Assembly (NCBI GenBank): GCA_025774935.1 | Contig: JALGZK010000006.1 | Location: forward strand, 1-64,000 | Source of the DNA: a bacterium | GTDB lineage: Bacteria; Joyebacterota; Joyebacteria; Joyebacterales; Joyebacteraceae | Length of the DNA: 64,000 nt | Direction of reading: 5' to 3' | Shown: positions 7,063-56,255 of the stretch, one piece after another | Layout of the letters: each line of letters opens with the position of its first letter | Position numbering within the stretch: position 1 is the stretch's first letter | Translations under genes and position numbers: made by a program | The notes under the pieces: model-generated | Databases searched by the model: none | What the model saw: the letters and a program-made list of their open reading frames with translations, nothing else | What the model was told of the DNA's origin: nothing

Positions 7063-8100
7063 TCAACGGTAGAGTGCCTTGATCGCGCTCCAGGAGGCAG
7101 GACTCACCGTTGTCGTGCAGTCGCCGCACCCCTGCGCCTCGCTCCCGATCAGGAGGCCCCAGGGGTTGTTGGCGGCGAGGCACGGCGAGTTCGAGCAGAG
7201 TGATACGGTCCCCTCTGCGAGATCGCAGAGGAGGGGGTCCTCCGACTCGTTGTCGTGGTGGTCGCCCGGGAGAGCGTCTCCGCCCTCGTTCCCGAACACG
7301 TAGCAGTGGAAGATCTCCGGATCGCCGCCCTCGATCCCGCTCCCGTTCGTGCTGAAGGCGACGATGCATCTCTCGATCGTCCCGCCGGAGCCTTCGAGGG
7401 TAATCCCTCCGGCGGTGAAGCTCGAGTTGCCGGCGATCGTGCAGCTCCGGACCACGGGCTCGGAGCTCGCGAACCAGAGGGCCCCGCCGTCGGCGGCGGT
7501 GTTGTCGTGGAAGGTGCTCCCGACGACGGCGACCGAGCCGGAGGATACGGAGACGGCCCCGCCGGTATCGTCGGCGGTGTTCCCGCGGAACTCGCAGTTC
7601 CTGACCTTCGCCGCTCCTCCGGAGACCTGGATGGCGCCGCCTCTCACGGCCCAGTTCTCCTCGAAGAGGCAGTTCCTGATGATCGGGGAACCTCCCCAGC
7701 AGTCGATGGCCCCGCCCGTCGTCGCGCTCCCCCGGATGAAGCGGAAAGCGTCGATGACGGTGGTCGAGTCGATGGCGGCGCCGAAGGCGAAGGCCCTCGC
7801 CGCGTTCTGGCAGTCGACGAGGGGAGTCTCCCAGTCGGGCTCGCCGGCGAGGGCGAGGCCCTGCAGGAGGATGTTCCGGCCGCCGAGATCCAGGTCGCGG
7901 TTCCCCTCTCCTCTGTACAGCCCGCCACGGACGAGCACCGTGTCGCCGCCGGCGACCGCGTCGATTCCCTCCTGGATCGTCAGGAACTGGCCGAAGCCGT
8001 TCGAGTCCACGAGGACGACACTGGCGGGGAGACGTCCCGTCAGCAGAGGGCCGGCAAGCGCAGCGCACGTGAGGAGAGCTGTGATGACGTTCCGGATCAT
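7063..8100 (-). CDS. Secreted beta-helix protein (Pmp-like repeats) with WGxIKxxYR-type tail, second copy
   Basis: A 345-aa exported beta-helix protein, the same design as the one at 1130-2425. It has a signal peptide (ITALLTCAALAGPLL), then FLTIQEGIDAVAGGDTVLV, then Pmp-like units FEENWAVRGGAIQVS, FRGNTADDTGGAVSV and FHDNTAADGGALWF. The C-terminus has the same Cys-rich segment (NSPCLAANNPWGLLIGSEA) and ends in SPASWSAIKALYR, where Ser replaces the usual Gly after Trp. ATG at 8100 has only a weak upstream GGA. The promoter at 8140-8169 supports a start near here and separates it from the upstream ABC operon. Confidence 0.83.
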   Translation of the reverse strand: MIRNVITALLTCAALAGPLLTGRLPASVVLVDSNGFGQFLTIQEGIDAVAGGDTVLVRGGLYRGEGNRDLDLGGRNILLQGLALAGEPDWETPLVDCQNAARAFAFGAAIDSTTVIDAFRFIRGSATTGGAIDCWGGSPIIRNCLFEENWAVRGGAIQVSGGAAKVRNCEFRGNTADDTGGAVSVSSGSVAVVGSTFHDNTAADGGALWFASSEPVVRSCTIAGNSSFTAGGITLEGSGGTIERCIVAFSTNGSGIEGGDPEIFHCYVFGNEGGDALPGDHHDNESEDPLLCDLAEGTVSLCSNSPCLAANNPWGLLIGSEAQGCGDCTTTVSPASWSAIKALYR

Positions 8101-16454: not shown

Positions 16455-17390
16455 CTACCTCCCGGACATCCTCTTCAAGTACTTCAGGTAGTCGCTCTCG
16501 GTCGTGAGGATGACCGACGTGTCCCCGCCGATCGTAGCCTTGTAGCTCTCGAGCGTCCTAAGGAACGAGAAGAACTCAGGGTCCCTGCCGTAAGCGGCCG
16601 CGTAGATGCCCGTCGCCTCAGCGTCGGCATCGCCGCGGACCTCCTGAGCGATGCGGTAGGCCTCGGACGTGATGCGTTCGAGCTCCTTCTCCTTCTGCCC
16701 CCGGATCTCCGCGCTCTGCCCCTGCCCCTCGGAGCGATAGCGCTCCGCGATCCGTTGCCGCTCGGAGATCATCCGCTCGTAGACCTTGAGCCTGACCTCC
16801 TCCACGTAGTTGACCCGCTTGATCCTGACGTCGATGAGCTCGATGCCGTACCGCGGCATCTGCTCCTCGGCCTTCTCGAGGATCTGCCGCGTGATCTCGG
16901 ACCGACCGACCTCGATTACCTCGCCCTCGCGAGTCTGGACGTCGAGCTCGGTCGCCGCCATCTTGCGGTTCGAGGTTCTGACGACCTCGATGAGGTCGTG
17001 GCTCGTGACGAGGTCTCGCGTCACGGCGTCGATGACGTCGTCGAGCCGCGCCTGCGCCCCGAGCTCGTTCGAGACAGACTGCATGAACCTGAGGGGATCG
17101 ACGATCCTCCAGCGCGCGAAAGTGTCGACCCAGATGTACTTCTTGTCCTTGGTCGGGATCTGGGAGGGGTTCCCGTCCCACTCGAGTATCCGCTTCTCGA
17201 AGACGTTCGCCTTCTGGATGAACGGGACCTTCATCTTGAGGCCCGGAGTCGTGATCGGGTCCCCGATCGGACGGCCGAACTGCGTCACGACAACCTGCTG
17301 CGTCATGTCGACGACGTAGATCGAGCTCGTCAGGAGGATGAGCACGACGACGCCGAGGATGATTGTGGTCGCGATCGTTCCCGTTCTCAT
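16455..17390 (-). CDS. hflC: HflC, SPFH-domain partner of FtsH protease
   Basis: A 311-aa band-7/SPFH protein. An N-terminal membrane anchor (TIILGVVVLILLTSSIYVV) places the rest in the periplasm, followed by VVVTQFGRPIGDPITTPGLKM and the SPFH core. The C-terminal half is a Glu/Arg-rich coiled coil. HflC and HflK form a large cage around FtsH in E. coli and modulate its proteolysis. Its start overlaps the end of hflK by 4 bp (ATGA), so translation is coupled. Length matches HflC (334 aa in E. coli). Confidence 0.95.
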   Translation of the reverse strand: MRTGTIATTIILGVVVLILLTSSIYVVDMTQQVVVTQFGRPIGDPITTPGLKMKVPFIQKANVFEKRILEWDGNPSQIPTKDKKYIWVDTFARWRIVDPLRFMQSVSNELGAQARLDDVIDAVTRDLVTSHDLIEVVRTSNRKMAATELDVQTREGEVIEVGRSEITRQILEKAEEQMPRYGIELIDVRIKRVNYVEEVRLKVYERMISERQRIAERYRSEGQGQSAEIRGQKEKELERITSEAYRIAQEVRGDADAEATGIYAAAYGRDPEFFSFLRTLESYKATIGGDTSVILTTESDYLKYLKRMSGR

Positions 17391-18379
17391 TCTCCACCTC
17401 CCTTCTGCTGCAGCTGAAGGAGGGGGATGAGGTTCTCGAGCTCGGGATCTACGATGTACTTGTTCTTAATGCCCGGCAGGACGTCGGTCAGGGTCTCGAG
17501 GTAGAGCCTCCGTTTCGTGACGTCCTTCGCCTGCGAGTACTCGCGCCACACGGCGACGAACCGTTCCGCGTCGCCCTGCGCGCGGTTGACCCTCGCGAGG
17601 GCGTAGCCCTCGGCGTCCCGGATCATCCGCTGGGCCTCGCCCTCGGCGGCCGGGATCGCTTTGTTGTACTCCGCCCAGGCCTCGTTGATGAGTCGTTCCT
17701 TCTCCTGCTTTGCCTCGTTCACCTCGTTGAACGAGGGCTTCACCTGGTCGGGTGGGTTCACGTCCTTGAGGTTCACCGTCACGATCTGGATGCCGGTCTC
17801 GTACTCGTCGAGGATGGCCTGCATGATCTGCTGCGTCTCGTCGGCCACCTCCCGGCGCCCGACCGTCAGGACCTCCGTCACGCTCCGGTCGCCGACGATG
17901 CGTCTTGTCGCCGCTTCCGAGACGTCCCGGAGGGTCTCCGGCACCTCTCGCACCTTGAAGAGGTACTTCACCGGGTCGCTGATCCTGTACTGGACGATCC
18001 ACTCAACCACCGCCGCGTTGAGGTCCCCCGTGAGCATGAGCGACTCCCCGGAGAAGTCCCCGCGCCGGTAGACCGTCCGGATCCCCGGGCGCTCCGTCGC
18101 GAAACCGAACTCCTCCTTGAAGACGTACCTCACGCGCACCTTGTGGACCTTCTCGAGCGCGAACGGGAGCTTGAGGTGGAGTCCGGGCTGCACCGTCCGC
18201 GCGTACGCTCCGAGTCTCTTCACGACGCCGACCTCGTCGGTCGCGACGGAGTAGAAGGTCGTCGACAGGAGGATGATCGCGACGATTCCGATGACGACCC
18301 AGCGAGCCAGGTCGCCCCGGAGCGCCGGGATTTCGAGGCGTTTCCTCGGTCTCACGAGCATCTCGGGATCGAACTCCAT
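17387..18379 (-). CDS. hflK: HflK, SPFH-domain partner of FtsH protease
   Basis: A 330-aa SPFH protein. ATG at 18379 follows AAAGGAG, and the promoter at 18479-18507 rules out the longer frame. The anchor is VVIGIVAIILLSTTFYSVAT at about residues 30-50, then VGVVKRLGAYARTVQPGLHLKLP, of which the YARTVQPGLHLKLP part is typical of HflK. DVNPPDQVKPSFNEVNEAKQ is the signature region of the C-terminal helix. It lacks the Gly/Pro-rich N-terminal tail of E. coli HflK. It forms a two-gene operon with hflC. Confidence 0.95.
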   Translation of the reverse strand: MEFDPEMLVRPRKRLEIPALRGDLARWVVIGIVAIILLSTTFYSVATDEVGVVKRLGAYARTVQPGLHLKLPFALEKVHKVRVRYVFKEEFGFATERPGIRTVYRRGDFSGESLMLTGDLNAAVVEWIVQYRISDPVKYLFKVREVPETLRDVSEAATRRIVGDRSVTEVLTVGRREVADETQQIMQAILDEYETGIQIVTVNLKDVNPPDQVKPSFNEVNEAKQEKERLINEAWAEYNKAIPAAEGEAQRMIRDAEGYALARVNRAQGDAERFVAVWREYSQAKDVTKRRLYLETLTDVLPGIKNKYIVDPELENLIPLLQLQQKGGGE

Positions 18380-18478
18380 GAGGGCTCCTTTCCGATCGGC
18401 ACGGGCGACGCGTGGCGCGGGCACACCGCTTCTGCCCGGTCGATCCGGATGGTGGTCGTTCGTCTTCGGCGTGCGGCC

Positions 18479-18507
18479 ATGGTATCCGGGGGGGAGGGGA
18501 CTTGCAA
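18479..18507 (-). promoter_or_regulatory. Sigma-70-type promoter of hflKC
   Basis: On the minus strand TTGCAA, 17 bp, TACCAT; predicted start near 18472. Confidence 0.55.
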
Positions 18508-18582
18508 CGGGCAACCGCCGGAGGAGGCGCGTGGCCCCGCCCGCCACGGGCCGGCCCACGGACTTCGGCCGCGGGCTGCTGC

Positions 18583-18611
18583 TTGACGAGCCGTGCTCTA
18601 TATGCTAGAAT
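18583..18611 (+). promoter_or_regulatory. Sigma-70-type promoter of the candidate selenoprotein gene
   Basis: TTGACG, 17 bp, TAGAAT. Predicted start near 18618, about 105 nt upstream of the ATG at 18723. Confidence 0.8.
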
Positions 18612-18722
18612 CCCTCCAATGAGCGGATTATGAGATGTCGCGGGACTGGCTGCCCAACGGCTCGCAGCAGCCTGAGCCCGCGGCGCGTGTCCATGAGGCC
18701 GTGAGGCCGGGGAGACTGGGAG

Positions 18723-19745
18723 ATGAAGTACGCGTCTGTCGTCGCCCTCGCGCTCCTGGCGCTGGCAGGTACGGCGTTCGGTGCGCAGAGGATCGTACAC
18801 TACGAACACTTCACAGCCGTGTGGTGAAGCACGTGTCCGGCGGCCGCAATCACGCTGGACGCGTGGCAGTTGCCACACACAGAAGCTGGTGAGATCTGTC
18901 TTGTTCAGAACGACTACGACGATTCCTTTAACTCCGCGAGGGTGTCGTTCCTCGGCGTGTCGGCGTGGCCGACCGTCTGCGGGAGCGGTCTCTCCGACTG
19001 CTGGCCCCTCACCTGGCTCGAGGCCGACTTCCAGGCGCACGCGGCGGTCCCCTCGCCGCTGACCATCTCCATCACCGAGAACGGGCAGGGCGACTTCACG
19101 GCGCACATCGAGGCCGAGGAAGACGTCGTCGACGCTGACTTCTTCATGGTCGCGACGCTCGACGAGTACGTACCCTCGGCCTCCGGGATGTCGCACCTCC
19201 CGCACCACGTGAAGGTCTACATGACCCCGCCGAGCTCGGGGGAGCCCTTCACCCTTCTGATGGGCGAGAGCGTCGACATCAACAAGACGTTCACCGTCCA
19301 GCCCGAGTGGGACTACAGTGACATGGGCGTCGCGGCGTGGGTCAGCAGGCCCGGCGGCACGAACACGAGCCCCTGCCCCTACGGCGACATCGGGAACAAG
19401 AACGAAGTGCTCCAGTCCAGCTGGATGGCGGCTGGCGGCACGTCGGTGCCCGAGGGCGTCAAGGCGAAGTTCGCGCTCTCGGCCCCTTCGCCGAATCCGT
19501 TCTCCGGGAAGTCCCGCATCGCCTACAGCCTGCCCGACAACGGCCGGGTCACGATCCAGCTGTACGACGTGGCGGGGAGGCACGTGGCTGTATTGCAGGA
19601 CGACGTCCTCCCGGCCGGGCCTCACGCCGTGACGTGGGACGGTCTGGACGAGGGTGGCCACGAGTGCGCGGGCGGGATCTACTTCGTTCGCATGACGTTC
19701 GAGGACGGACAGGTGGCGAGCGAGAAGGTCGTGAAGCTGAAGTAG
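18723..19745 (+). CDS. Candidate selenoprotein: secreted thioredoxin-like (Omp28-like) protein with U-x-x-C site and FlgD-like C-terminal domain
   Basis: The frame from ATG 18723 (GGGGAG 8 nt upstream) to 19745 is open except for one TGA at 18825-18827, codon 35. Upstream of it lies a full signal peptide (MKYASVVALALLALAGTAFG) and EHFTAVW. Downstream come STCPAA and the rest of the protein. Omp28/thioredoxin-like proteins have FTxxWCxxCP here, so the TGA replaces the first Cys, giving W-U-S-T-C-P. A 13-bp hairpin starts 3 nt after the TGA. The domain continues with the expected cis-Pro loop (SAWPTV) and ends in a FlgD/T9SS-like C-terminal domain (SPNPFSGKSRIAYSLP, GGIYFVRM, KVVKLK). If the TGA were a true stop, the remaining ORF from 18870 would lack both signal peptide and active site. 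Function: extracytoplasmic thiol/selenol redox, inferred. A sequencing error of a Cys codon is the main alternative. Confidence 0.75.
18830..18865 (+). promoter_or_regulatory. Candidate bacterial SECIS hairpin after in-frame TGA
   Basis: CACGTGTCCGGCG (18830-18842) pairs with CGCTGGACGCGTG (18853-18865) over all 13 positions, two of them G-U. The 10-nt loop GCCGCAATCA begins with G. The stem starts 3 nt and the loop 16 nt after the TGA at 18825-18827. Bacterial SECIS elements are hairpins directly downstream of the UGA with a G near the start of the apical loop. Confidence 0.65.
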
Positions 19746-20055: not shown

Positions 20056-20373
20056 GTGAGGAAGCTGCTGCTGGTGTCAGTGTTGCTCGCGGCGCTGTTC
20101 GTGGCCACCGGCGCGTCGGCGACCATCTTCCTCTACGAGGACTACGACTCGAACACCGAGAGCACCACGTTCGCTGCTCGCGGCTCGAGCAACGGGACCT
20201 CGGTCGAGGGGAGCGGCGGGTCGGGCGGACCGGGCGGATCCGGTGGCGACCTGATGACACCTGAGATCGAGGATCCACCACCGCCGCCCGTGCCCGAGCC
20301 TGCTACGTGGGCGCTTCTGAGCACCGGGCTGGTGGGATTCGGCGCCGCCTTCCGGAAGAGGCTCTTCCGGTAG
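20056..20373 (+). CDS. Small PEP-CTERM sorting-domain protein
   Basis: A 105-aa exported protein. GTG at 20056 is preceded by GGGAGGTGAGG. The signal peptide (LLLVSVLLAALFVATGASA) is followed by a short low-complexity Ser/Gly region, a Pro run and a classical PEP-CTERM tail: VPEPATW, then a hydrophobic helix ALLSTGLVGFGAAF, then basic RKRLFR. In known systems this tail is cut and attached by exosortase (EpsH/XrtA) in bacteria that make exopolysaccharide. No exosortase gene lies in this window. The protein itself has little else besides the tail. Confidence 0.9.
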   Translation: MRKLLLVSVLLAALFVATGASATIFLYEDYDSNTESTTFAARGSSNGTSVEGSGGSGGPGGSGGDLMTPEIEDPPPPPVPEPATWALLSTGLVGFGAAFRKRLFR

Positions 20374-20634: not shown

Positions 20635-21453
20635 ATGAGAAGGTGTTATCAGATCGCGATCGTCGCCCTCGCGCTGGCCCTCGCCACGTCGGCGTTCGCC
20701 ACGGAGTACCTCGAGGTGAGCGCGAAGGGCGCTCCTGCGGGCGACTGTCTGGGCCTCGACCAGGTCGGTGGGGTGAACATCTCGCTCACGCCGGGCATGA
20801 TCTACACGGTGACGGTCGACGGCGACGCTCGCGCGAACCCGCTTCCGGGAGGTGAGTTCGACGGCCTGTTCGTCTACTACTACGACGGCACGGCACCGGA
20901 CCATCCGATCCAGTACTTCCTCCCGAAGAACGAGCCGCTCGTGTTCGTCGCGAGCGACACTCCGTTCTACGCGTTCCTGGTCGACAAGACCCTGAAGGAC
21001 GTCGCCGACAACTCAGGCATCTTCACGTTGACGTTCGAGGCGGCCGGAGGCACGCGCGAGACTCTCGACGTCAACGCGATCTTCAACTGCATCGGCCTCG
21101 AGGACATGGGCGCGGCGAAGATCATCCTGACACCGGAGCAGTTCTACTCGATGTCAGTGACGGGCGAGGCCTGCACGAACGGGCAGCCCGACGGGTGCTT
21201 TGACGGCGTCTGCCTCTTCTACCGCAGGATAGACGAGGAGCCTCCGCGACCCATCCACCCGATCCTTCAGGTCCTCCATCCGGGCGAGGTTCAGAACTTC
21301 CAGATCCACGTCACGGGATGGGTCTACTCGTTCTTCGTCGACGAGAGCTTCTTCACGGTCGGCAACAACTACGGGGCCATGACGCTCGCCTTCGACGACC
21401 AGACCCCGGTTGAGAATGCGACCTGGGGAACGATTAAGGCGCTGTACCGGTAG
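20635..21453 (+). CDS. Secreted two-repeat protein with WGxIKxxYR tail, function unknown
   Basis: A 272-aa exported protein; ATG at 20635 follows GAGAGGAGG. The signal peptide is IAIVALALALATSAFA. The mature part is two tandem copies of an unrecognised domain of about 115 residues. Compare CLGLDQVGGVNISLTPGMIY with CIGLEDMGAAKIILTPEQFY, and FDGLFVYYYDG with FDGVCLFYRRI. Each copy predicts as beta-rich. The second copy has additional Cys residues. The protein ends in TPVENATWGTIKALYR, the shared tail. It is monocistronic, with its own promoter and terminator. No enzyme motif was seen; surface attachment is inferred from the tail only. Confidence 0.82.
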   Translation: MRRCYQIAIVALALALATSAFATEYLEVSAKGAPAGDCLGLDQVGGVNISLTPGMIYTVTVDGDARANPLPGGEFDGLFVYYYDGTAPDHPIQYFLPKNEPLVFVASDTPFYAFLVDKTLKDVADNSGIFTLTFEAAGGTRETLDVNAIFNCIGLEDMGAAKIILTPEQFYSMSVTGEACTNGQPDGCFDGVCLFYRRIDEEPPRPIHPILQVLHPGEVQNFQIHVTGWVYSFFVDESFFTVGNNYGAMTLAFDDQTPVENATWGTIKALYR

Positions 21454-21581: not shown

Positions 21582-24500
21582 CTACTTGATGAGAACGGTC
21601 TTCCTGGTCCGGTTCTCGCCGCCCGCGGCGAGCCTCACGAAGTAGATCCCGTTCGCGACCCTGTTCCCACCCGCGTCGGTGCCGTCCCAGGTCTCCTCGT
21701 GGGGGCCGGCGTCATACGGACCCGACGCCACGACCTTCACCAGGCGTCCGGCCACGTTGTAGACCTCGAGCTCGACGTCCCTGCTGTCAGGGAGGAAGAA
21801 GCGCATCGTCGTCACGTTCCCGAACGGGTTCGGGAACGCCGGGTTCAGGGCGAGGTGCCTGGTGGTCGCCGGCTCGACCGAGGTGAGTCCTAGGTCGACG
21901 CGGATCGCCCGCTGGTGCGCTCCGGCGTTCCCGCCGACGCGCAGCCAGAGCGTCGCGAGAGAATCCTCGCGGGCGTCAGACACCACGAGCACGAAGGGGT
22001 CGCCTTCGTTCGCTCCGTTCCCGCCGGCGGGGATGTCCGCGATCGCCGCCGTGCTGTCGACGACCGCGACCGAGGAGTCCCCGGCCGAGAGCGTGAGCTC
22101 GACGCCGCTGGCGGCGGCGAGCCCCTCGTTCGAGAGCTCCACGACGAGCGAGACGGTCTCGCCGACCTCCGCCTGCCCGTTCCCGTTGCCGCCCTCGCTG
22201 TCGTCGACGGCGAGCCCCTCGAACACGAGCCACGGAAGAAGGAGTGTCTCCGGCGGAACCGTCGTGAAGCGGACGGCGAGGTCGTCCTGAAGAGGCGCGG
22301 CCCGCGGATCGTACACGCCGTTGTGGACGTACTGGAGCCCGTCACGCTGGTCGGGACTCTCGATGCCGACCGTACAGCTGTCCGGGTCCGCGACCGTCTT
22401 GTACTGGAAGAGGATCACGCTGTTCCCCGACGGCGTCGGGTAGAAGTTCGGGTCGTAGAACACGACCTGGAAGGTCTCGGCGTCGGGGCTGTTCTTGTGC
22501 CGGACGGCCTCGTACTGGACGACGAACCTGTGGCCGATCATGTCGCTCCAGGTGTAGACGTCGCCGCCCACGGAGGGATCGAGGTCGGTCCAGAAGGGAG
22601 CCACCATGCTCGGCGGCCCCAGGTCCGACGGGATAGGCGTGTTCGTGCCGTACTCGAAGTTGGTCATCTCGAGCGCCACGAACCCGTTCGAGCAGAGCAC
22701 CGCGTACGGCGTGGGGTCGTCGTAGTACGTGTTAATGAACGGCGGGAAGACGAGCTTCGTGTCGTCGTCGTTGTCGCTCACGCGGTTCATGCGGACGCCC
22801 GGTCCCGGCGGCGCGATCTCGATCCACTCGAACTCCGGCGCCTCCGCGAACAGGGTGTCCGTCGAGTCGTACGCGTAGTAGCCGTGGAAGTCGGGTCCCG
22901 AAGGGAGGGTGTGGAGCGACGTGAACACGTCCAAGTCGATCGTGAGACTTTCGGCGTAAGCGTACGAGGCCGCGTCGGCCTCGACCCTCAGCCTGAGCGT
23001 CGCGGTGTAGTCCGAGGGGACGCTCGGTGCGATCGAGACGACGAACGGCGCGTCCACGTTGACGGCGTTCGACCCCTCGTCCACGTCACCGTACGCTGCG
23101 TGGTCCGCGGCGACCGACACGTACGGGTCGTCGCTCGAGAGGTAGGCCCTTACCGCATCGAGGCCGGAACCGGATTCGTTCCCGAGCGTCACGGTGAGGC
23201 CGGCCGTCTCGCCGGGCGCCGCGGCCCCGTCGCCGTTCCCGCCGGGAGTCGCGTCGTCGACGGTGAAGGAGGTGACGGCGAGGTCGCCCGTCACGGTCTC
23301 GAGAGGCGCGGGGCGCCACGTGCTCGAGGTGCCCGCGTAGGCCATGGCGAGCGTCACCGGGATGTGGGCGCCTCCGGGCCACGTCTCCGAGAGCTCGAGC
23401 GTGAATGGCGTATTGGAGCACGCCGTCCCTCCCGACGGGATGTCGGGGAACGTGGCGACGCTGTCGACGAGCGTCACGAACTCGTTCGGCGTGCGGAGTG
23501 TCACCGAGACGTCGGTCGCCTCGGTCCCGCCGATGTTGGAGACACAGAAGGAGACCTCCGCCGTCTCGCCGGGGCTCAGGTAGCCGTCTCCGTTCCCGCC
23601 GCCCGCGTCGTCGACGTCCGCGCTCTCGTCGATGAGATACGCCGCGGCCGGACCGAGGAGCCTCCGTCCGTTCCAGGGGATGGCGTTCTTCGTGGCGGCC
23701 GTGAGGTCAACGCTGCAGGGGAGGGCCGCCTCGAAGGAGAACACGATCTCGCCGCCGCCGTCGGTCTCGCCCCACATGAAGAGCGAGGTGTCCATCGCGC
23801 ACGTCACGGCTGCGTCGGCGACGGGCCCCCTGTCCGACGTCACGGTCAGCGTGAGAGCAACGTCCTCGTAGTCGACGGCCACGTCGAGCGCGACGTCGAG
23901 GGGCGAAGCCTGGGCGGTCCACAGCGAGAGCGCCGGGTCCCCGAGCAGGCTCCAGCCCTCGTACTCCTCCTGGTCGTAGACGTGCGCGAAGAGGTTCGCT
24001 TTCGCGGCGAGGGTCGCCTCCCCGAGAACGGTGCCCTCGCGGAGGGCGCTTCCGAAGAATCCCTCGCAGACGTAGCCCCTCTTCCGAGAGAGAGCCTCTC
24101 CCTGTCCAAAGGTACACGTCCCGTAGAAGGCCGCTCCGCCTATGAGGTCGTCCGGAGATCCCGCCTTGAGCCACAGCTCGGAGAAGTGTGGATCTCCTAC
24201 GAACGCGCCCGTGAAGCAGGTCGCCGACATCACGATCGGAAGCTCGCCCACGTTCGTGAGCATCGTCGGCGCGAACGTGAAGGGCTGAGCCCAGAAGTCC
24301 CCCGCGACCCCACGGTAGCTCACGTACCCCGGCCCCGCGTTCAGCGAAGCGTACGTGTCGGAGATGTCGATGCCGTCGGCGGCCGCGAGGAAGTCGACCG
24401 GGGCGAACCCTAGCGAGTCCATCAGGTCCTCCACGAACCCGGTGTTCTCGTAGTAGATCATGTCACCCATGTCGAAGTCGTCGCGCAGGAGGAGGCTGCC

Positions 24501-25595
24501 GGAGAGCATCCACGTCGGGTCGTCCGCCAGCCACGGCCTGTCGTACGCGAAGCACTTCGCGATCATCGTCTCCAGCTCATCGACGGTGTCGGCGGGCAGC
24601 CGACCGACGAGGATGTCCGACAGGAAGTCGTTCCCGTCGACGGCCGCGTACCGGTTGTCCGAGTGGAACTCGACGCTCGGCCGGTACGTCGGCACGAGCT
24701 CCGAGTCGCCGACGATGAGGAGGAACTCGGGCGGTATATCCCAGGTGTGATAGGCGTTCGAGACGTAGTCCTGAACGTCCTCGAAATCGAAGCCGGTCTC
24801 CAGGATCGACACGACCTTCGGGCGAAGGCCCGCCGCGGCCCTCCACTCGACGAGCGGCATGATGGCCTCCTCGAGCGAGTGGCCGGTGATCACGAGGTAG
24901 CGGGCCCCGGTGGGCGCGGCGTCGCGTCCGCGTCCCCCGTCCCGGGGGAGGGGCGCCAGGCCGACGCCGGTCGGCGCGCCAGAGTAGTTGATGATCTGCC
25001 CTTCGTAGATCCGGCGGAAGATCGGCGAGACCGGGTTCGGCGGTCCCGACTTCTCGTTCGTGCCTGCGCCCGGCGCGGATCGGAGCGTGAGCTCGATGGG
25101 GGCGCCGTCGCCCGGCGCGTATGTCACCTGCACGACGCGGACGTCCCGCAGGATCGCCGGCTCGGACACGTCGAGGGACGCGGCGGGACCGGTCCCGGCC
25201 GGTGCCGGGACTCCCGTGACCTCTGTCTCGATCGCACCCGTCGGAGGGACCTCGACCAGGACGGTGAACGGCCCGATCGCCGACGAGACCGCGAGCCACG
25301 AGCTTCCTCCGTAACGGTCCGCGCGCTCGGGCCGGAATCGCACGGGCCCGCCTTCCGCGGACCCGCCGCGCGGGGTGCCCGGCCGCCAGTCCGCCTCGAA
25401 GCGGAGCGTCACGTAGTCGTCGCTCTCCGAGACGACCGTCGCGGTCGACTCGCAGCGCGGAGTGTCTTCCGACGCGCGCGCCACGTGTGACGCCTCGCCG
25501 TTCGACGAAGACGTCGTCCCGACGTGCGGGAGTGACAGAACGAAGACCGCGACCAGGAACGTCGCGGCCATGACGGTAGGTACGGGACGCGACAC
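21582..25595 (-). CDS. Giant secreted peptidase-C25 (gingipain)-like protein, catalytic His replaced, FlgD-like C-terminal domain
   Basis: A 1337-aa exported protein; GTG at 25595 follows GGAGG. The signal segment is VMAATFLVAVFVLSLPHVG. A propeptide-like region reaches to about residue 230. A C25 domain follows at about 230-590, with ARYLVITGHSLEEAI, FLLIVGDSELVPTY, FLSDILVGRLPADT and LPIVMSATCFTGAF. The catalytic Cys aligns with Cys460, but the GHG that holds the gingipain catalytic His reads G-V-A (Val430). Then come three Ig-like modules opening with GGNGDG-type Asp/Gly loops, a nidogen-like region (SNGFVALE, APFWTDLDPSVGGDVY) and a FlgD/T9SS-like C-terminal domain (PAFPNPFGNVTTMRFFLP, GIYFVRLA, KTVLIK). 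Secreted or surface-bound. It may be an inactive or altered peptidase. Paralogous to 25824-29882. Confidence 0.87.
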   Translation of the reverse strand: MSRPVPTVMAATFLVAVFVLSLPHVGTTSSSNGEASHVARASEDTPRCESTATVVSESDDYVTLRFEADWRPGTPRGGSAEGGPVRFRPERADRYGGSSWLAVSSAIGPFTVLVEVPPTGAIETEVTGVPAPAGTGPAASLDVSEPAILRDVRVVQVTYAPGDGAPIELTLRSAPGAGTNEKSGPPNPVSPIFRRIYEGQIINYSGAPTGVGLAPLPRDGGRGRDAAPTGARYLVITGHSLEEAIMPLVEWRAAAGLRPKVVSILETGFDFEDVQDYVSNAYHTWDIPPEFLLIVGDSELVPTYRPSVEFHSDNRYAAVDGNDFLSDILVGRLPADTVDELETMIAKCFAYDRPWLADDPTWMLSGSLLLRDDFDMGDMIYYENTGFVEDLMDSLGFAPVDFLAAADGIDISDTYASLNAGPGYVSYRGVAGDFWAQPFTFAPTMLTNVGELPIVMSATCFTGAFVGDPHFSELWLKAGSPDDLIGGAAFYGTCTFGQGEALSRKRGYVCEGFFGSALREGTVLGEATLAAKANLFAHVYDQEEYEGWSLLGDPALSLWTAQASPLDVALDVAVDYEDVALTLTVTSDRGPVADAAVTCAMDTSLFMWGETDGGGEIVFSFEAALPCSVDLTAATKNAIPWNGRRLLGPAAAYLIDESADVDDAGGGNGDGYLSPGETAEVSFCVSNIGGTEATDVSVTLRTPNEFVTLVDSVATFPDIPSGGTACSNTPFTLELSETWPGGAHIPVTLAMAYAGTSSTWRPAPLETVTGDLAVTSFTVDDATPGGNGDGAAAPGETAGLTVTLGNESGSGLDAVRAYLSSDDPYVSVAADHAAYGDVDEGSNAVNVDAPFVVSIAPSVPSDYTATLRLRVEADAASYAYAESLTIDLDVFTSLHTLPSGPDFHGYYAYDSTDTLFAEAPEFEWIEIAPPGPGVRMNRVSDNDDDTKLVFPPFINTYYDDPTPYAVLCSNGFVALEMTNFEYGTNTPIPSDLGPPSMVAPFWTDLDPSVGGDVYTWSDMIGHRFVVQYEAVRHKNSPDAETFQVVFYDPNFYPTPSGNSVILFQYKTVADPDSCTVGIESPDQRDGLQYVHNGVYDPRAAPLQDDLAVRFTTVPPETLLLPWLVFEGLAVDDSEGGNGNGQAEVGETVSLVVELSNEGLAAASGVELTLSAGDSSVAVVDSTAAIADIPAGGNGANEGDPFVLVVSDAREDSLATLWLRVGGNAGAHQRAIRVDLGLTSVEPATTRHLALNPAFPNPFGNVTTMRFFLPDSRDVELEVYNVAGRLVKVVASGPYDAGPHEETWDGTDAGGNRVANGIYFVRLAAGGENRTRKTVLIK

Positions 25596-25823: not shown

Positions 25824-28800
25824 CTATCTCAGCACGACTGCCTTCCTGGAGGCCGTGTTGCTGCCGGCCTCGACGCGGACGAGGTAGACGCCGCTCGCGA
25901 CCCTCCCGCCCGAGTTGTTCGTTCCGTCCCACGGGAGCGCGTGCTCGCCGGCCTCGAGCGGGGCATCGCAGACGGTCTTCACGAGCCTGCCCGCCGTGTT
26001 GTAGACGCGCACGGTCACCCTCTCGGACTGGGGGAGGGTGAGCCGCATGGTCGTGCTGCCCTGGGTCGGGTTCGGGAAGCACGGCATGAACCTGAAGGCG
26101 AGCACCTCGCCGTCATCGATGCCGGTCTCATCAACGACGATGTGGAGGTCGAACCTTGCGCTGCCCTGGTACGCGCCGCCGTTCGCCTCGACGAGCGCCC
26201 ACAGCGTCGCGATCGAGTCGGCCGCCGCGTCCGAGACGTAGAGCTCCAGGTCTCCCTCGGCGCTGCTTCCCGTCCCGCCCGAAGGGATGTTCGGCACGGC
26301 CGCGGTGCTGTCCGTGACGGTGATCGCGCTCTCCGCCGACGTCAGCGTGAGCGAGACTCCGTTCGCGGCTTCGATGCCCTGGTTGGTGAACTCGAGCGAG
26401 ATCTCGATCGTCTCTCCGGGCTCGGCTCTCCCGTTCCCGTTTCCGCCCGACGAATCGTCGATCGTTGCATCGTTAAGGACGAGCCACGGCGCCTGCGGTT
26501 CGCCCGGCTCGATCGTCGTGAACCGGATCACGTTCCCGTCCACGAGCGGCGCGGCGTGCAGGCCGTACGACCCGTCGAAGAGGTACTCGATGCCGTCGGT
26601 CTGGATCGGGTTCTCGATGCCCACGGTGCACTCGTCGGGGTTCGTGACGGTCTTGTACACGAACAGGAGCTCGCTGTCGCCCGTCGGCGTCGGATAGTAG
26701 TTCCGGTCGCGGATGATGACCTGGAACGTCTCGGCCTCCGTCGTCCCCCAACGATAGACGCCCTCGTACTGGACTATGTAGCGGTGGTTGGCTACGTCGT
26801 TGTACCTGTACACGTCGCCGCCCGCCGAAGGATCGAGGTCGTCCCAGAACGGCGAGATCATGGCCGCCGGGCCGTGAAGGCTCGGGATGCCCGAGTTGTC
26901 ACCGTAGATGTAGTCGTTGGGTCCGGCCGTCACGAAGCCGTTCGACGAGATCGAGAACCAGTAGAAGATGGTGCCGTAGAACTGGATGCCGAACGGGAGC
27001 GGCAGCGGAGTGATGGCCGCGTCCTCGTCCGTGATCTGGCTCACGATCGTGCCGGGGCCAGGAGGAGCGATGTCGAACCACTCGTAGGTCGGAACCGGCG
27101 CGAAGAGCGTGTCCGTGACGTCGTACGCGTAGTAGCCGTACTCGTCCGGTCCGGTGGGGAAGCTTGCCGGCTGTCCGATGATCGTGAGGTCGACGTCGAG
27201 CGTCTCCGCGTACGCGTAGCTGTGGCCCGCGGCGGAGAGGATCAGATCGAACGACGCCGTCTGGCCGGTCGGCGTGTTTGGCATGACCGACACGACGAAT
27301 GGTACGGCGTGGTTCGCGACGTCGGCACCGGGAGCCGCGTCGGGGAACGTCGTATGTCCCGTCGTGACCGCGACGAAGGACGACTCGCTCACGAGCGTGG
27401 CGTCGATGTCGGCAAGACCGCAGAGCCCGGAGTTCGTCAGCGTAAGAACCAGTCCCGCCGTCTCACCGGGGCCGACGTTCCCGTCCCCGTCGCCTCCCGG
27501 CGTCGGGTCGGATACGGCGGTCCCGTCGTAGACGAACCTGCCGGTCGCGATCGGGATCGGCGGCATGTCGGAGATGATCGTCTCGCCGTCGAACGTGATG
27601 GAGAGCCACGCGGGCGCCTCGTGCCCGACCGGGCACGACGCCGAAATGGTCAGCTCGAAGTCGTCGAGTCCCCACGTCGTCTCGCCGGCCGGTATCGTCC
27701 CGTAGGCGGCAGTGCTGTCGGTCACCGTCGCGTGGGGGTCATCCGTGCGCAGGGCAGCGGCCGTCGTGACGGCCGTCTCGTCTCCCACGTTATGGAGTTC
27801 GACCGCGACCGTCGCCGTCTCGCCGGGGCTCAGGTAGCCGTCGCCGTTCCCTCCGGACGAGTCGTCGAGCGTGAGCTCGGAGAAGATGACGAACGGCCCG
27901 CTGTCCAGCACCTGCGCGACCGCCTCGTACGCGTAGCAGTTCCTCCGCGTGATGGTGAGCGCGAGCTCGCCGGGCGTCAGGGGTTCGATCGGTATCGACA
28001 CGTTGCCGGTCGCGTCGGTGTACCCGAACGAGAACACCTCGCCGTCCTTGGTCAGCGCGACGAGCGCGTCGGCCGCCGGGGTGCCCTCCACGGTCACGGA
28101 GACGGCGAACTCCTGGAGTCCGATCTGCACCGCGTGGACGTGCTCGACCGTCATGTCCACCGGGTCGGCGGTCCAGAGGGAGAGCTCCGGATCGCCGAGG
28201 AGGTTCATCCCCTCGTACTCCATCTGCTCCGGTTCGATCATGTAGAGCTTGAGCTTCCCGGCGTTGCAGGCTTCGCCCAGCGTGAGTCCGTTCTCGCCGA
28301 ACGCGTTCTCGAAGAAGCCCGTGCACACGTACCCCCGGCGGCGTGAGAGCTGCTGACTCCCCTCGATCGCGGTGTTCGACCCGAAGAACGCGACGCCGCC
28401 CTTGGGGTTCGTGCTGGTGCCCGCCCGCACCCACGCCTCGCAGACGTAGAAGTCATGATGGAAGGTCCCCGTCCCACAGGTCGCCGAGACAACGACCGGG
28501 AGCCGGTTGACGTTCGTGAGATTGTACGGGTCGATGTCGAACGGGTTGTTCCAGTTGTAGAACGCCTGCCCGCGGAAGTTGAGGAAGCCCTTCCCGGCGT
28601 TGACGGACGCGTAGACGTCGCCCGTCGTCGAGTCGTTCCTGCGGAAGAGCGTGTCGATCGGGGCGAGCTCCATCTCGTCCATGAGGTCGTACACGTCCCA
28701 CGTGTTGTCGTAGTAGATGTAATCGCCGTTGTCGTAGTCGTCGGCCACCATGAGAGTCGCGCTCGCCGGCCAGTGCGCGTACATGCGAGGCGGCGTCCTC

Positions 28801-29882
28801 TCGTACTTCAAGTACTTCACGACCTGGGTCGCGCACTGCCCCGACGTGTCGGCCGAGAGCCGCCCGATGAGGATGTCCGCGAGGTAGTCGCCGCCGTCTA
28901 TCGCGGCGTAGTAGTTGTCGGTCGGCGTGAGGCCGTCGCCGATCGGGAGGGCCTCCGTGTCGCCGACGAGCAGCACGAACTCAGGCGGGATGTCCCAGGT
29001 GTTGTAGGCCTCTGTGATGTAGGCGCGAATCTGCGACTTGGAGGAGCCGATGAGCGAGAGCCTTGTGACGATCGTGCTCACACCCTTGAGTCGCTTCCAC
29101 TCCGCGAGCGGCTCGACGAGGCCCTCGTACAGGTCGCGGGTGATGATGAGGTAGCGCGCGCCGAACGGGTCGCGTCCGCCGGGACCCCGGTCCGGGGAGA
29201 CGGCGTCCGCCGGCTCCGGCCGGTAGTTCACGATGCTCGTCTCGTACATGCGGCGGAACGCGGGAGACGGCGGCATCCGCCTGCCGACCTTCTCGTTCGC
29301 TCCCTGCTCGGAGGTTGCGCGGAGCGAGAGAACCGCGGCGCTCACGGGCGCGCGCCCGCTGGTCGCGGCGGGGGAGAAGGTGACACGCACGAGACGCACG
29401 TCGCGCATGATCGCGGGCTCGGAGATCCGGAACAGGTCGCCGACCTCGAGCTCGCTCGCCGCGCCGTCGACCGACTCAAGGGTCGCCTCTACCGCTCCAC
29501 GGTCCGGCACCTGAACGAGTATCGAGAACGCGGCGGGACCTCGCGCACTCGCGGACCACGCTCCGTCGGGGAAGGCACTGCCGTTGCTTTCCGTTCTCTC
29601 GTACGCCGCGTTCGCGAGCTCGGGCGTCTCGTCGTCGGCCGCGCCCGGAGAGCGCCATGCGTCCGGCGGCCCCGTCGCCTCGAAGCGAAGCACGACGGCG
29701 TCCGCCGTGCTCTCCTCGACCTCGACCGACGATTCGACGACCGGCGGACTGTCGCTGGTGTGAACGGCCCGCGTGATCCCCCCGGTCCACGCGGTCTCAG
29801 TGATGACTGCCCCGGATGCGACCAGAACGACGGCCGTCATGGCGAGCGCGAACCCCACGTTCAAGCGCGACCCACGAAGCAC
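25824..29882 (-). CDS. Giant secreted peptidase-C25 (gingipain)-like protein, catalytic His replaced, second paralogue
   Basis: A 1352-aa exported protein. GTG at 29882 follows GAGGGAGGG and lies downstream of the promoter at 29950-29978, which excludes the longer frame. The signal segment is FALAMTAVVLVASGAVI. The C25 domain is recognisable from ARYLIITRDLYEGLV, FVLLVGDTEALPIG, YLADILIGRLSADT and LPVVVSATCGTGTF. Cys469 matches the catalytic Cys, but the GHG position reads G-Q-A (Gln439). Ig-like modules with GGNGDG loops, a nidogen-like region (SNGFVTAG, SPFWDDLDPSAGGDVY) and a FlgD/T9SS-like C-terminal domain (PCFPNPTQGSTTMRLTLP, GVYLVRVE, KAVVLR) follow in the same order as in the neighbour. 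The pair arose by tandem duplication, and both keep the Cys while losing the His. Confidence 0.87.
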   Translation of the reverse strand: MLRGSRLNVGFALAMTAVVLVASGAVITETAWTGGITRAVHTSDSPPVVESSVEVEESTADAVVLRFEATGPPDAWRSPGAADDETPELANAAYERTESNGSAFPDGAWSASARGPAAFSILVQVPDRGAVEATLESVDGAASELEVGDLFRISEPAIMRDVRLVRVTFSPAATSGRAPVSAAVLSLRATSEQGANEKVGRRMPPSPAFRRMYETSIVNYRPEPADAVSPDRGPGGRDPFGARYLIITRDLYEGLVEPLAEWKRLKGVSTIVTRLSLIGSSKSQIRAYITEAYNTWDIPPEFVLLVGDTEALPIGDGLTPTDNYYAAIDGGDYLADILIGRLSADTSGQCATQVVKYLKYERTPPRMYAHWPASATLMVADDYDNGDYIYYDNTWDVYDLMDEMELAPIDTLFRRNDSTTGDVYASVNAGKGFLNFRGQAFYNWNNPFDIDPYNLTNVNRLPVVVSATCGTGTFHHDFYVCEAWVRAGTSTNPKGGVAFFGSNTAIEGSQQLSRRRGYVCTGFFENAFGENGLTLGEACNAGKLKLYMIEPEQMEYEGMNLLGDPELSLWTADPVDMTVEHVHAVQIGLQEFAVSVTVEGTPAADALVALTKDGEVFSFGYTDATGNVSIPIEPLTPGELALTITRRNCYAYEAVAQVLDSGPFVIFSELTLDDSSGGNGDGYLSPGETATVAVELHNVGDETAVTTAAALRTDDPHATVTDSTAAYGTIPAGETTWGLDDFELTISASCPVGHEAPAWLSITFDGETIISDMPPIPIATGRFVYDGTAVSDPTPGGDGDGNVGPGETAGLVLTLTNSGLCGLADIDATLVSESSFVAVTTGHTTFPDAAPGADVANHAVPFVVSVMPNTPTGQTASFDLILSAAGHSYAYAETLDVDLTIIGQPASFPTGPDEYGYYAYDVTDTLFAPVPTYEWFDIAPPGPGTIVSQITDEDAAITPLPLPFGIQFYGTIFYWFSISSNGFVTAGPNDYIYGDNSGIPSLHGPAAMISPFWDDLDPSAGGDVYRYNDVANHRYIVQYEGVYRWGTTEAETFQVIIRDRNYYPTPTGDSELLFVYKTVTNPDECTVGIENPIQTDGIEYLFDGSYGLHAAPLVDGNVIRFTTIEPGEPQAPWLVLNDATIDDSSGGNGNGRAEPGETIEISLEFTNQGIEAANGVSLTLTSAESAITVTDSTAAVPNIPSGGTGSSAEGDLELYVSDAAADSIATLWALVEANGGAYQGSARFDLHIVVDETGIDDGEVLAFRFMPCFPNPTQGSTTMRLTLPQSERVTVRVYNTAGRLVKTVCDAPLEAGEHALPWDGTNNSGGRVASGVYLVRVEAGSNTASRKAVVLR

Positions 29883-29949
29883 GTTTCCCTCCCTCTCTTC
29901 AAAGGCGTGATCCTGCACCACGGCCAAGGCCATGTGGTGCAACCGTTCC

Positions 29950-29978
29950 AGTATATCACATGAATGGTCATTCGTCAA
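29950..29978 (-). promoter_or_regulatory. Strong sigma-70-type promoter of second C25-like gene
   Basis: On the minus strand TTGACG, 17 bp, TATACT; predicted start near 29943, about 60 nt upstream of the GTG at 29882. Confidence 0.8.
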
Positions 29979-30056
29979 CCAGTGGGGGCATCGGCGCTCT
30001 GTTCCGTGTGACTGCGGCGTCCACTCCAGGGGGCGTTCTCACCAGGCCTGCGGGGG

Positions 30057-41052: not shown

Positions 41053-41525
41053 GACGCGCAGTTCCGCTCGCACTCATCGCGGTACTGACGCTGACCACGC
41101 TGGCTTCCGCGCAGTTCTGCGAGGAGGCGGTCGAGGTCACGGCCGGCCCGGGCACGATCTACGTCGACCACTCGAACGCGGAGTTCAACTGCTGCTCCTG
41201 GACCGACGTCGACGTCGCCCACGAGGGCTACAGCATCGTCGTGACCGAGTATGAGAGGTTCGAGGAAGGACCCTGCTTCTGCTTCTGCTGCTTCGAGGTC
41301 TCCGCGAGCGTCTCGGGCCTCGATCCGGGTGACTACGAGGTCGAGGTCGTCAAGGCCTACGACAACTTCGACGGATCCTGGACGTACGAGCCGCTCGGAG
41401 TCTGGTTCGTGACGGTCGGGGGGGAGTCCCTGCCGGCCGTCTTCACGAGCTACGTCCCCTGCGCGAACGTGGGCGCCGCATCGGGCCCCGCGAGCTGGGG
41501 CGTCATCAAGGCTCTCTATAGATAG
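41049..41525 (+). CDS. Small Cys-rich secreted protein with WGxIKxxYR tail, paralogue B
   Basis: A 158-aa exported protein, tandem paralogue of the preceding gene and translationally coupled to it (ATGA overlap). The signal peptide is LALIAVLTLTTLASA. The same landmarks recur: AEFNCCSWTDVDV, PCFCFCCFEV, VSGLDPGDYEVEV. It ends in SGPASWGVIKALYR, the shared tail without extension. The CC and CxCxCC clusters are conserved between the pair, so they are structural or metal-binding. Terminator follows at 41608-41634. Confidence 0.83.
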   Translation: MRRAVPLALIAVLTLTTLASAQFCEEAVEVTAGPGTIYVDHSNAEFNCCSWTDVDVAHEGYSIVVTEYERFEEGPCFCFCCFEVSASVSGLDPGDYEVEVVKAYDNFDGSWTYEPLGVWFVTVGGESLPAVFTSYVPCANVGAASGPASWGVIKALYR

Positions 41526-55670: not shown

Positions 55671-56255
55671 ATGAGACTTGTGCTCACGGTTCTTCTGACC
55701 GCGGCCCTCGCAGTGTCCGCGTCCGCAGGCCTGAACCCCGACGCCCGGATGTACCTCGATTTCGACCCGCCGGACGGCGTTCACCGGATCGAGGAGCCCC
55801 CGGACCCCGTCGTGAACATCTACGTTGTGCTGGACTGCCTCGGAGTGGACAGCGGAATAAACGGGTGCACGATTCACTTCGAGCGGACCTTTGGGGCCAC
55901 GGCTCACGACGAGGTCTGCCTGATCGGCTTCTTCAGCGGCGGGGACGTCGAGGACCCGGAGTTCGGATGGTACATCGTTACCCAAGGCGAGTGCATCTAC
56001 CCCGACGCGAACGGGATGATCATCGTCGGCTACGTTCTCTACTATTACACTGGTCCTCCCGGCTACGTGAAGATCGCTGCGGCCGAGGTTGCAGGCAAGG
56101 AGGTGCTCGACTGCAACAACATGACCGACGTGTACTGCGTAGCCGACAACGCCGGCATCGGTGCCGACCCGCCTCCGGGCGACCCCGGCTGCTACTGTGG
56201 ACCGGTGCCCGTCGAGGACGCGAGTTGGGGGACGATCAAGTCCCTGTACCGGTGA
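55671..56255 (+). CDS. Secreted beta-rich protein with WGxIKxxYR tail, function unknown
   Basis: A 194-aa exported protein; ATG at 55671 follows AGAGGGAGG. The signal peptide is LTVLLTAALAVSASA. The mature region is one beta-rich domain, with VNIYVVLDCLGVDSGINGC near the start, VLYYYTGPPGYVKIAA later and several Cys residues that probably form disulfides; family not recognised, though cohesin-like or NEAT-like Ig folds are conceivable. The end is CYCGPVPVEDASWGTIKSLYR, the shared tail. It is monocistronic, with an extended -10 promoter and a terminator at 56294-56322. Confidence 0.82.
   Translation: MRLVLTVLLTAALAVSASAGLNPDARMYLDFDPPDGVHRIEEPPDPVVNIYVVLDCLGVDSGINGCTIHFERTFGATAHDEVCLIGFFSGGDVEDPEFGWYIVTQGECIYPDANGMIIVGYVLYYYTGPPGYVKIAAAEVAGKEVLDCNNMTDVYCVADNAGIGADPPPGDPGCYCGPVPVEDASWGTIKSLYR

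What the first reader, a model, noticed from the sequence alone, without database searches (positions are those of the whole stretch)
18723..19745. Selenocysteine at a thioredoxin-like active site: W-U-S-T-C-P with a 13-bp SECIS-like hairpin
Seen: one TGA (18825-18827) in an otherwise open 341-codon frame. It splits a signal peptide from the rest of the protein and falls on the first Cys of a W-C-x-x-C-P motif. A perfect 13-bp stem (18830-18865) with a G-first loop follows. Known: bacterial selenoproteins often have U-x-x-C in thioredoxin folds, and a SECIS hairpin directly downstream of UGA. Inferred: a secreted Omp28-like redox selenoprotein carrying a FlgD/T9SS-like sorting domain. I know of no described selenoprotein with this layout.
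Basis: partly seen in the sequence, partly recalled or inferred. Interest (0 to 1): 0.88.

Follow-up and report, generated by a model that had tools for sequence, protein, structure and literature searches.

The report
Exported selenocysteine thioredoxin-like protein, Omp28/HBP35 type
A bacterium from a poorly known phylum uses the rare amino acid selenocysteine, instead of cysteine, in the active site of a secreted thioredoxin-like protein, and the same genome holds at least five related genes of the same kind, so these uncultured bacteria appear to run a selenium-based redox chemistry outside the cell.

Summary
The TGA at 18825-18827 lies in an otherwise open 341-codon frame, and the genome has tRNA-Sec(UCA), selA, selB and a selD that itself carries an in-frame UGA. 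Twelve distinct homologues from independent MAGs all have TGA at this codon and form one fully supported, all-Sec clade. Across 89 wider relatives the same column is UGA (54) or Cys (35) and nothing else. Sec copies, but not Cys copies, carry SECIS-type hairpins well beyond synonymous shuffles, with compensatory changes. The predicted core (pLDDT 95.5) matches P. gingivalis HBP35, a T9SS-exported surface thioredoxin (Foldseek E 8e-11). The tail passes the T9SS type A cut-off, and the translocon SprA is in the genome. Best reading: a T9SS-exported Sec thiol-disulfide oxidoreductase. The closest described selenoprotein is GOS_C/NF045500 ('Omp28-related selenoprotein'); this is the same kind but scores 12 bits against a cut-off of 200, so a separate subfamily. 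Caveat: the window gene and its closest sister replaced the family's canonical hairpin with an 11-13-bp one that, in the window gene, misses published bSECIS limits by one nucleotide. No protein-level proof.

The parts
18723..19745 (+). CDS of the predicted selenoprotein (340 aa with UGA read as Sec; ATG start, TAG stop)
   Evidence: homologues
18709..18714 (+). possible ribosome-binding site GGGGAG, 8 nt before the ATG
   Evidence: sequence
18723..18785 (+). predicted signal peptide MKYASVVALALLALAGTAFGA (cleavage after residue 21 inferred)
   Evidence: sequence; helix 2-15 in the model; hydrophobic N-terminus in the homologues
18825..18827 (+). Sec UGA codon 35, first residue of the U-x-x-C motif
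   Evidence: TGA in 12/12 family members; UGA 54 / Cys 35 / other 0 in relatives
18834..18836 (+). resolving Cys38 of USTCP
   Evidence: invariant
18830..18865 (+). SECIS-like hairpin: 13 bp (18830-18842/18853-18865), 10-nt loop, loop begins 15 nt after UGA
18820..18877 (+). outer helix 18820-18827/18870-18877 that encloses the UGA and the hairpin (not kept with significance in the sister gene)
18786..19433 (+). Omp28/HBP35-like core: thioredoxin-like part followed by a beta-sandwich
   Evidence: model pLDDT 95.5, best PDB match 5y1a HBP35 E 8.4e-11; profile match to 5y1a E 9.8e-10
18969..18971 (+). Pro83, the probable cis-Pro of the thioredoxin fold (AWPT)
   Evidence: invariant in 66/66 rows
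19491..19736 (+). C-terminal FlgD_ig / T9SS type A sorting domain
   Evidence: TIGR04183 30.4 bits (cut-off 23), PF13860 32.7 bits (cut-off 27)
17387..18559 (-). hflK, divergent neighbour kept next to the gene in 8 loci; ends in a normal TGA stop
   Evidence: TIGR01933 278 bits; synteny; stop codon
16455..17390 (-). hflC
   Evidence: TIGR01932 279 bits

Best explanation
The gene encodes a selenoprotein. During translation UGA-35 is decoded as selenocysteine by SelB and tRNA-Sec(UCA), guided by the hairpin directly downstream (decoding inferred from machinery, conservation and RNA structure; not shown at protein level). The precursor crosses the inner membrane by its signal peptide. The mature core is an HBP35/Omp28-type thioredoxin fold fused to a beta-sandwich, with Sec35-Ser-Thr-Cys38 as the redox pair and an invariant cis-Pro (shown by profile and model). 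The FlgD/T9SS type A tail most likely hands it to a type IX secretion system, so it acts at the cell surface or outside (inferred: tail model and SprA are present, transport untested). There Sec35 would make a selenenylsulfide with Cys38 and reduce or rearrange disulfides or peroxides of partner proteins (inferred from Trx chemistry and from HBP35, which reduces insulin). Without selenium or SelB, translation would stop after residue 34, leaving only the leader.
For: Complete Sec machinery in the genome; selA in 17/20 and tRNA-Sec in 19/20 genomes of the phylum. TGA at the same codon in all 12 distinct family members from independent MAGs. The active-site column in wider relatives is only UGA or Cys, and the family is one all-Sec clade (12 rows, 100/100 support). 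SECIS: canonical 7-bp hairpin in most of the 12, 4 pairs with changes on both sides, 0/500 shuffles reach the covariation score. Over 54 Sec genes, 25 meet the bSECIS model against 7.5 expected from synonymous shuffles, while 35 Cys genes give 1 against 2.3, and a control region 60 nt downstream shows no excess in Sec genes (1 against 1.2). TGA is a normal stop elsewhere, e.g. hflK. Fold and tail. SprA about 530 bits in a 2208-aa frame. HBP35 is exported by the Por/T9 system (PMC3120885) and has thioredoxin activity that needs its two Cys (PMC2907840).
Against: The window gene and its sister (L016/L100) do not form the family's canonical hairpin; the window's own stem has spacing 15 nt and loop 10 nt, against published limits of 16-37 and 3-9 (PMC13188914). 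The window protein alone hits no thioredoxin or Omp28 model above cut-off; the fold assignment rests on the family profile and the model. Three members (L101, L102, L108) lack the FlgD/T9SS tail, so the export route is not a constant of the family. No raw reads, transcripts or proteomics were available.
Confidence: 0.87

Rival explanations
1. The TGA is a sequencing error or a recent nonsense mutation, and the gene is a cysteine protein or a pseudogene.
For: A single TGA in a MAG contig could be an artefact; no reads were available.
Against: Twelve distinct homologues down to about 40% identity, in independent MAGs, all carry TGA at this codon and an intact frame on both sides.
Confidence: 0.01
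2. The UGA is a real stop: the gene makes a 34-residue leader, and the rest (from TTG 18870 or another start) is a separate, cytoplasmic product or is not translated.
For: By table 11 an ORF of 291 aa starts at TTG 18870.
Against: That start would remove the first beta strand and the U-x-x-C motif of the thioredoxin fold and the signal peptide. Residues across the UGA are conserved (E28, H29, C38, P39 invariant), and Cys replaces UGA in related proteins.
Confidence: 0.03
3. UGA is reassigned genome-wide to a standard amino acid (as in codes 4 or 25), so it is not Sec.
For: In-frame TGAs occur in several genes.
Against: hflK ends in TGA and 12 of 26 large open frames in the window end in TGA (not all of these frames are verified genes). 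The in-frame TGAs aligned in relatives sit at one redox-active column. The UCA tRNA found is a tRNA-Sec, and SelD has UGA in its UxxK motif.
Confidence: 0.01
4. It is simply a member of the known GOS_C / NF045500 Omp28-related selenoprotein family.
For: Same fold, same UxxC position; 11/12 members hit NF045500 weakly (best 1.1e-6); profile comparison with GOS_C-like paralogues is 99.9% probable.
Against: 12.1 bits for this protein against a cut-off of 200; none of the 20 genomes of the phylum has a match over that cut-off. In the tree the family is a clade of its own, separate from the GOS_C-like paralogues of the same genomes.
Confidence: 0.12

Closest known systems
GOS_C / NCBIfam NF045500 'Omp28-related selenoprotein' (PLoS Genet 2008, PMC2398784; review table PMC13188914)
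   Same: Omp28-related, thioredoxin-like fold, Sec as first residue of UxxC near the N-terminus, SECIS-like hairpin after UGA, many Cys homologues
   Different: This protein reaches 12 bits where the cut-off is 200; 340 aa, own clade, different beta-domain sequence, FlgD/T9SS tail. GOS_C-like paralogues (up to 68 bits) lie elsewhere in the same genomes
Porphyromonas gingivalis HBP35 (PDB 5y1a; PMC2907840, PMC3120885)
   Same: Thioredoxin domain plus beta domain plus T9SS C-terminal domain; best structural match (TM 0.71 on the query, E 8.4e-11)
   Different: HBP35 uses W-C-G-Y-C-P, not Sec; about 14% identity; heme binding was not tested here
Omp28 family (PF11551 / NF033782; P. gingivalis Omp28, PDB 2r2c is one domain)
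   Same: 12/12 members hit NF033782 (best 1.2e-8), 7/12 hit PF11551
   Different: The window protein is far below the NF033782 cut-off (13.5 of 150 bits); 2r2c matches only partially (E 1.2e-3, TM 0.49 on the target)
Selenoprotein thioredoxins, DsbA/DsbG-like and TlpA-like selenoproteins (PMC13188914 Table 1)
   Same: Sec in a redox motif of a thioredoxin fold
   Different: No beta-sandwich or T9SS tail is named for them in the table

Membership tests
Bacterial selenoprotein | In-frame UGA in a conserved coding frame | tested here: met
   12/12 homologues
Bacterial selenoprotein | Cys-containing homologues at the UGA position | tested here: met
   35 Cys and 54 Sec in aligned relatives; not within the narrow family, which is all Sec
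Bacterial selenoprotein | Host encodes SelA, SelB, SelD and tRNA-Sec | tested here: met
Bacterial selenoprotein | bSECIS: 4-16 bp stem, 3-9 nt loop with G in first two positions, 16-37 nt from UGA, MFE <= -7.5 | tested here: inconclusive
   Stem, loop, spacing and G met by 10/12 family members, most of them also on energy. The window gene: stem length, energy and G-first met, spacing 15 and loop 10 just outside
Bacterial selenoprotein | Sec demonstrated by mass spectrometry or 75Se labelling | not testable with these tools
   -
NF045500 Omp28-related selenoprotein (GOS_C) | Score above curated cut-off 200 bits | tested here: not met
   12.1 bits
HBP35/Omp28-like thioredoxin fold | CxxC/UxxC at the helix start, cis-Pro, Trx part plus beta domain | tested here: met
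T9SS cargo | C-terminal sorting domain above cut-off | tested here: met
   TIGR04183 30.4 bits, cut-off 23; 8/12 members hit the model
T9SS cargo | T9SS translocon present in the genome | tested here: met
   SprA, 529.8 bits with neighbours in the frame; other T9SS parts not searched
T9SS cargo | Shown to be secreted in a T9SS-dependent way | not testable with these tools
   -

The most novel reading that the evidence does not exclude
These phyla export a set of selenocysteine thioredoxins through a type IX secretion system, with at least six Omp28-type Sec genes in this one genome, forming an extracellular selenium redox layer. No relevant paper in the searched library joins selenoproteins with T9SS.
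Probability: 0.5. Interest if true: 0.75.

Novelty: new variant of a known kind. Interest (0 to 1): 0.62.

Why it matters
Exported selenoproteins are an odd investment: Sec is costly and the protein leaves the cell. A lineage that keeps a pure-Sec exported thioredoxin family (12/12), next to a larger paralogue family in which Sec and Cys exchange repeatedly (6-7 changes on the tree), gives natural Sec/Cys pairs for asking what Sec buys outside the cell. Ordinary annotation cuts these genes at the UGA, just after the leader, so their number is probably under-counted. The unusual hairpin of the window gene is also a test case for how far bacterial SECIS rules stretch.

Tried and rejected
Rfam scan of the window: nothing over threshold. 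A full-length structure model from 12 sequences (pLDDT 75) gave only beta-sandwich matches with TM about 0.2 and was replaced by the 66-sequence core model. A first RNA test using overall MFE of 45 nt after the codon showed a clear excess only in class B paralogues and not in class A; the constrained bSECIS scan separated Sec from Cys genes. The 13-bp stem as a family-wide SECIS was rejected: only 57% of cells pair across the family. The synonymous-change test between window and sister showed no unusual conservation of the hairpin (3 of 16 same-residue codons changed, 75 of 295 overall), so it adds nothing either way. The 552-aa antisense ORF (18003-19661, minus) is taken as a high-GC by-product: it overlaps hflK and the sense gene, whose frame is the conserved one. 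The comparison A6 with A7 is circular and was replaced by A6 with A8.

Full report
OBSERVATION. The 341-codon frame 18723-19745 holds one in-frame TGA at 18825-18827 and ends in TAG. The encoded protein starts with a hydrophobic leader, then YEHFTAVW-U-STCP. The hairpin 18830-18865 is real: 13 contiguous pairs (two G.U), loop GCCGCAAUCA, -25.2 kcal/mol; an outer helix pairs the UGA region itself with 18870-18877. Codon-preserving shuffles of the same peptide rarely fold as well (P about 0.0007; sister gene 0.003).

MACHINERY. The window's genome (G000, 3.24 Mb, 96% complete) has tRNA-Sec with anticodon UCA (71.5 bits), selA (533 bits), selB (345 bits) and selD (371 bits). SelD carries an in-frame UGA in its UxxK motif (ECAG-U-ASK) and lies about 150 bp from the tRNA-Sec gene. 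selA was found in 17 and tRNA-Sec in 19 of 20 genomes of the phylum. TGA is also an ordinary stop here: hflK ends in TGA, as do 12 of 26 large frames in the window.

CONSERVATION. A search of the 20 genomes gave, counting the window gene, nine full or partial family members in eight genomes, all with one TGA at the same codon. A scan of 84,980 species genomes, with a query that deliberately left out the active-site codon, gave nine loci, of which six repeat these and three are new (L101, L102, L108), all with TGA. Record titles include Candidatus Krumholzibacteriia and Candidatus Eisenbacteria MAGs. So there are 12 distinct members, 12 TGA, no Cys form.

WIDER FAMILY. A profile of the family found relatives in 29 of 80 genomes of the phylum of L102's genome, and NF045500 found about 50 distant paralogues in the window's own phylum. 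When all were aligned, the first active-site position was UGA or Cys and nothing else (51 and 34 by context; 54 and 35 in the tree set). In the tree the finding's family is one clade with 100/100 support, all Sec; over the whole tree the Sec/Cys label changes at least 6-7 times. The own genome has at least six Omp28-type Sec genes: the window gene, C30 (two), C14 (two) and C1.

SECIS. In ten of twelve members the RNA after the UGA forms a 5-8-bp stem (7 bp as a rule) with loop AGUU, GGUC or AGGU, 20 nt from the UGA. Four pairs have changes on both sides, e.g. C-G to A-U and G-C to U-A in L019/L022; over all twelve 86.9% of cells pair, and 0 of 500 shuffles reach the covariation score. Applying the published bSECIS limits (PMC13188914) to hairpins alone, 25 of 54 Sec genes pass against 7.5 expected from synonymous shuffles; 1 of 35 Cys genes passes against 2.3 expected; a region 60 nt further on shows no excess in Sec genes. 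The window gene and its 87% sister are the exceptions: they lost the canonical pairs and make an 11-13-bp stem whose loop is centred about 2 nt nearer to the UGA, in the window gene missing the limits by 1 nt in spacing and loop length. That is a wrinkle, not a refutation, since the same review says that a subset of putative bSECIS elements fails these limits.

FOLD AND FUNCTION. Scans of the window protein alone recognise only the tail above cut-off, but other members hit Thioredoxin, Omp28, NF033782 and NF045500. A core model from 66 sequences has pLDDT 95.5 and pTM 0.91. Its best PDB match by far is 5y1a, P. gingivalis HBP35 (E 8.4e-11, TM 0.71 on the query); a profile search independently ranks 5y1a first (E 9.8e-10). 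HBP35 reduces insulin through its two active-site Cys (PMC2907840) and reaches the cell surface through the Por/type IX system by its C-terminal domain (PMC3120885). The window protein has the same order: leader, Trx part, beta part, tail. The tail passes the T9SS type A cut-off, and SprA, the T9SS translocon, is present in the genome (about 530 bits). The likely action is therefore thiol-disulfide or peroxide chemistry at the cell surface with Sec35 as attacking residue and Cys38 as resolving residue; direction and substrate are unknown. Three members have other ends in place of the FlgD tail, so the core, not the tail, defines the family.

NEIGHBOURHOOD. hflK-hflC lie divergently upstream in eight of the loci compared, and an uncharacterised protein with a leader (20635-21453) and C25-type peptidases lie downstream in most of those. 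HflKC modulates the membrane protease FtsH (general knowledge); a functional link is not shown.

KNOWN OR NEW. The closest described selenoprotein is GOS_C, found in 2008 in ocean metagenomes as 74 Sec sequences with a Trx-like fold and UxxC (PMC2398784), now NF045500 (PMC13188914). This protein is the same kind but scores 12.1 bits against a cut-off of 200, and no genome of its phylum passes that cut-off. Profile-profile comparison confirms distant common descent with the GOS_C-like paralogues (99.9%, E 2e-34). So it is a new selenoprotein subfamily, an HBP35-like T9SS-tailed variant, not a new principle. No relevant paper in the searched library links selenoproteins to T9SS or to these phyla; most subscription literature was not searchable.

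Noticed in passing
window 21424-21453 (+), 41496-41525 (+), 56226-56255 (+), 7063-7092 (-); 28 places in G000: A C-terminal motif W-G-x-x-I-K-[AS]-L-Y-R-stop ends at least 20 otherwise unlike proteins, most with a leader; 28 matches in the genome against 0 for the reversed pattern. Two members of the finding's family (L101, L102) end in W..VK[AS]LYR in place of the FlgD/T9SS tail, so it may be an alternative sorting or anchoring tail. The one such protein scanned (20635-21450) had no Pfam or NCBIfam hit.
   Followed up: partly
G000 C30, C14, C1; loci L053-L098, L118-L140: Large expansion of about 600-900-aa Omp28-type proteins with UGA at the same site in these genomes, often next to Cys copies; sibling genes switch between Sec and Cys, and two Cys copies close to Sec ones (L063, L065) still keep the SECIS-like hairpin sequence.
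   Followed up: partly
window 20056-20373 (+): Small protein with a PEP-CTERM sorting signal (TIGR02595 and PF07589 over cut-off) in a genome that also has T9SS-type tails.
   Followed up: no
window 21582-25595 and 25824-30038 (-): Two long neighbouring open frames; the first is a C25 (gingipain-type) peptidase with a T9SS type A tail, and both match the same proteins of related loci.
   Followed up: no
G000 C21:41496-41525 and C21:87782-87811: The same 30-base end of two tail-motif genes occurs twice on the window's contig, which suggests a recent local duplication.
   Followed up: no
G000 C14:177978-179137: selD and tRNA-Sec lie next to each other, while selA and selB are on other contigs.
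   Followed up: no
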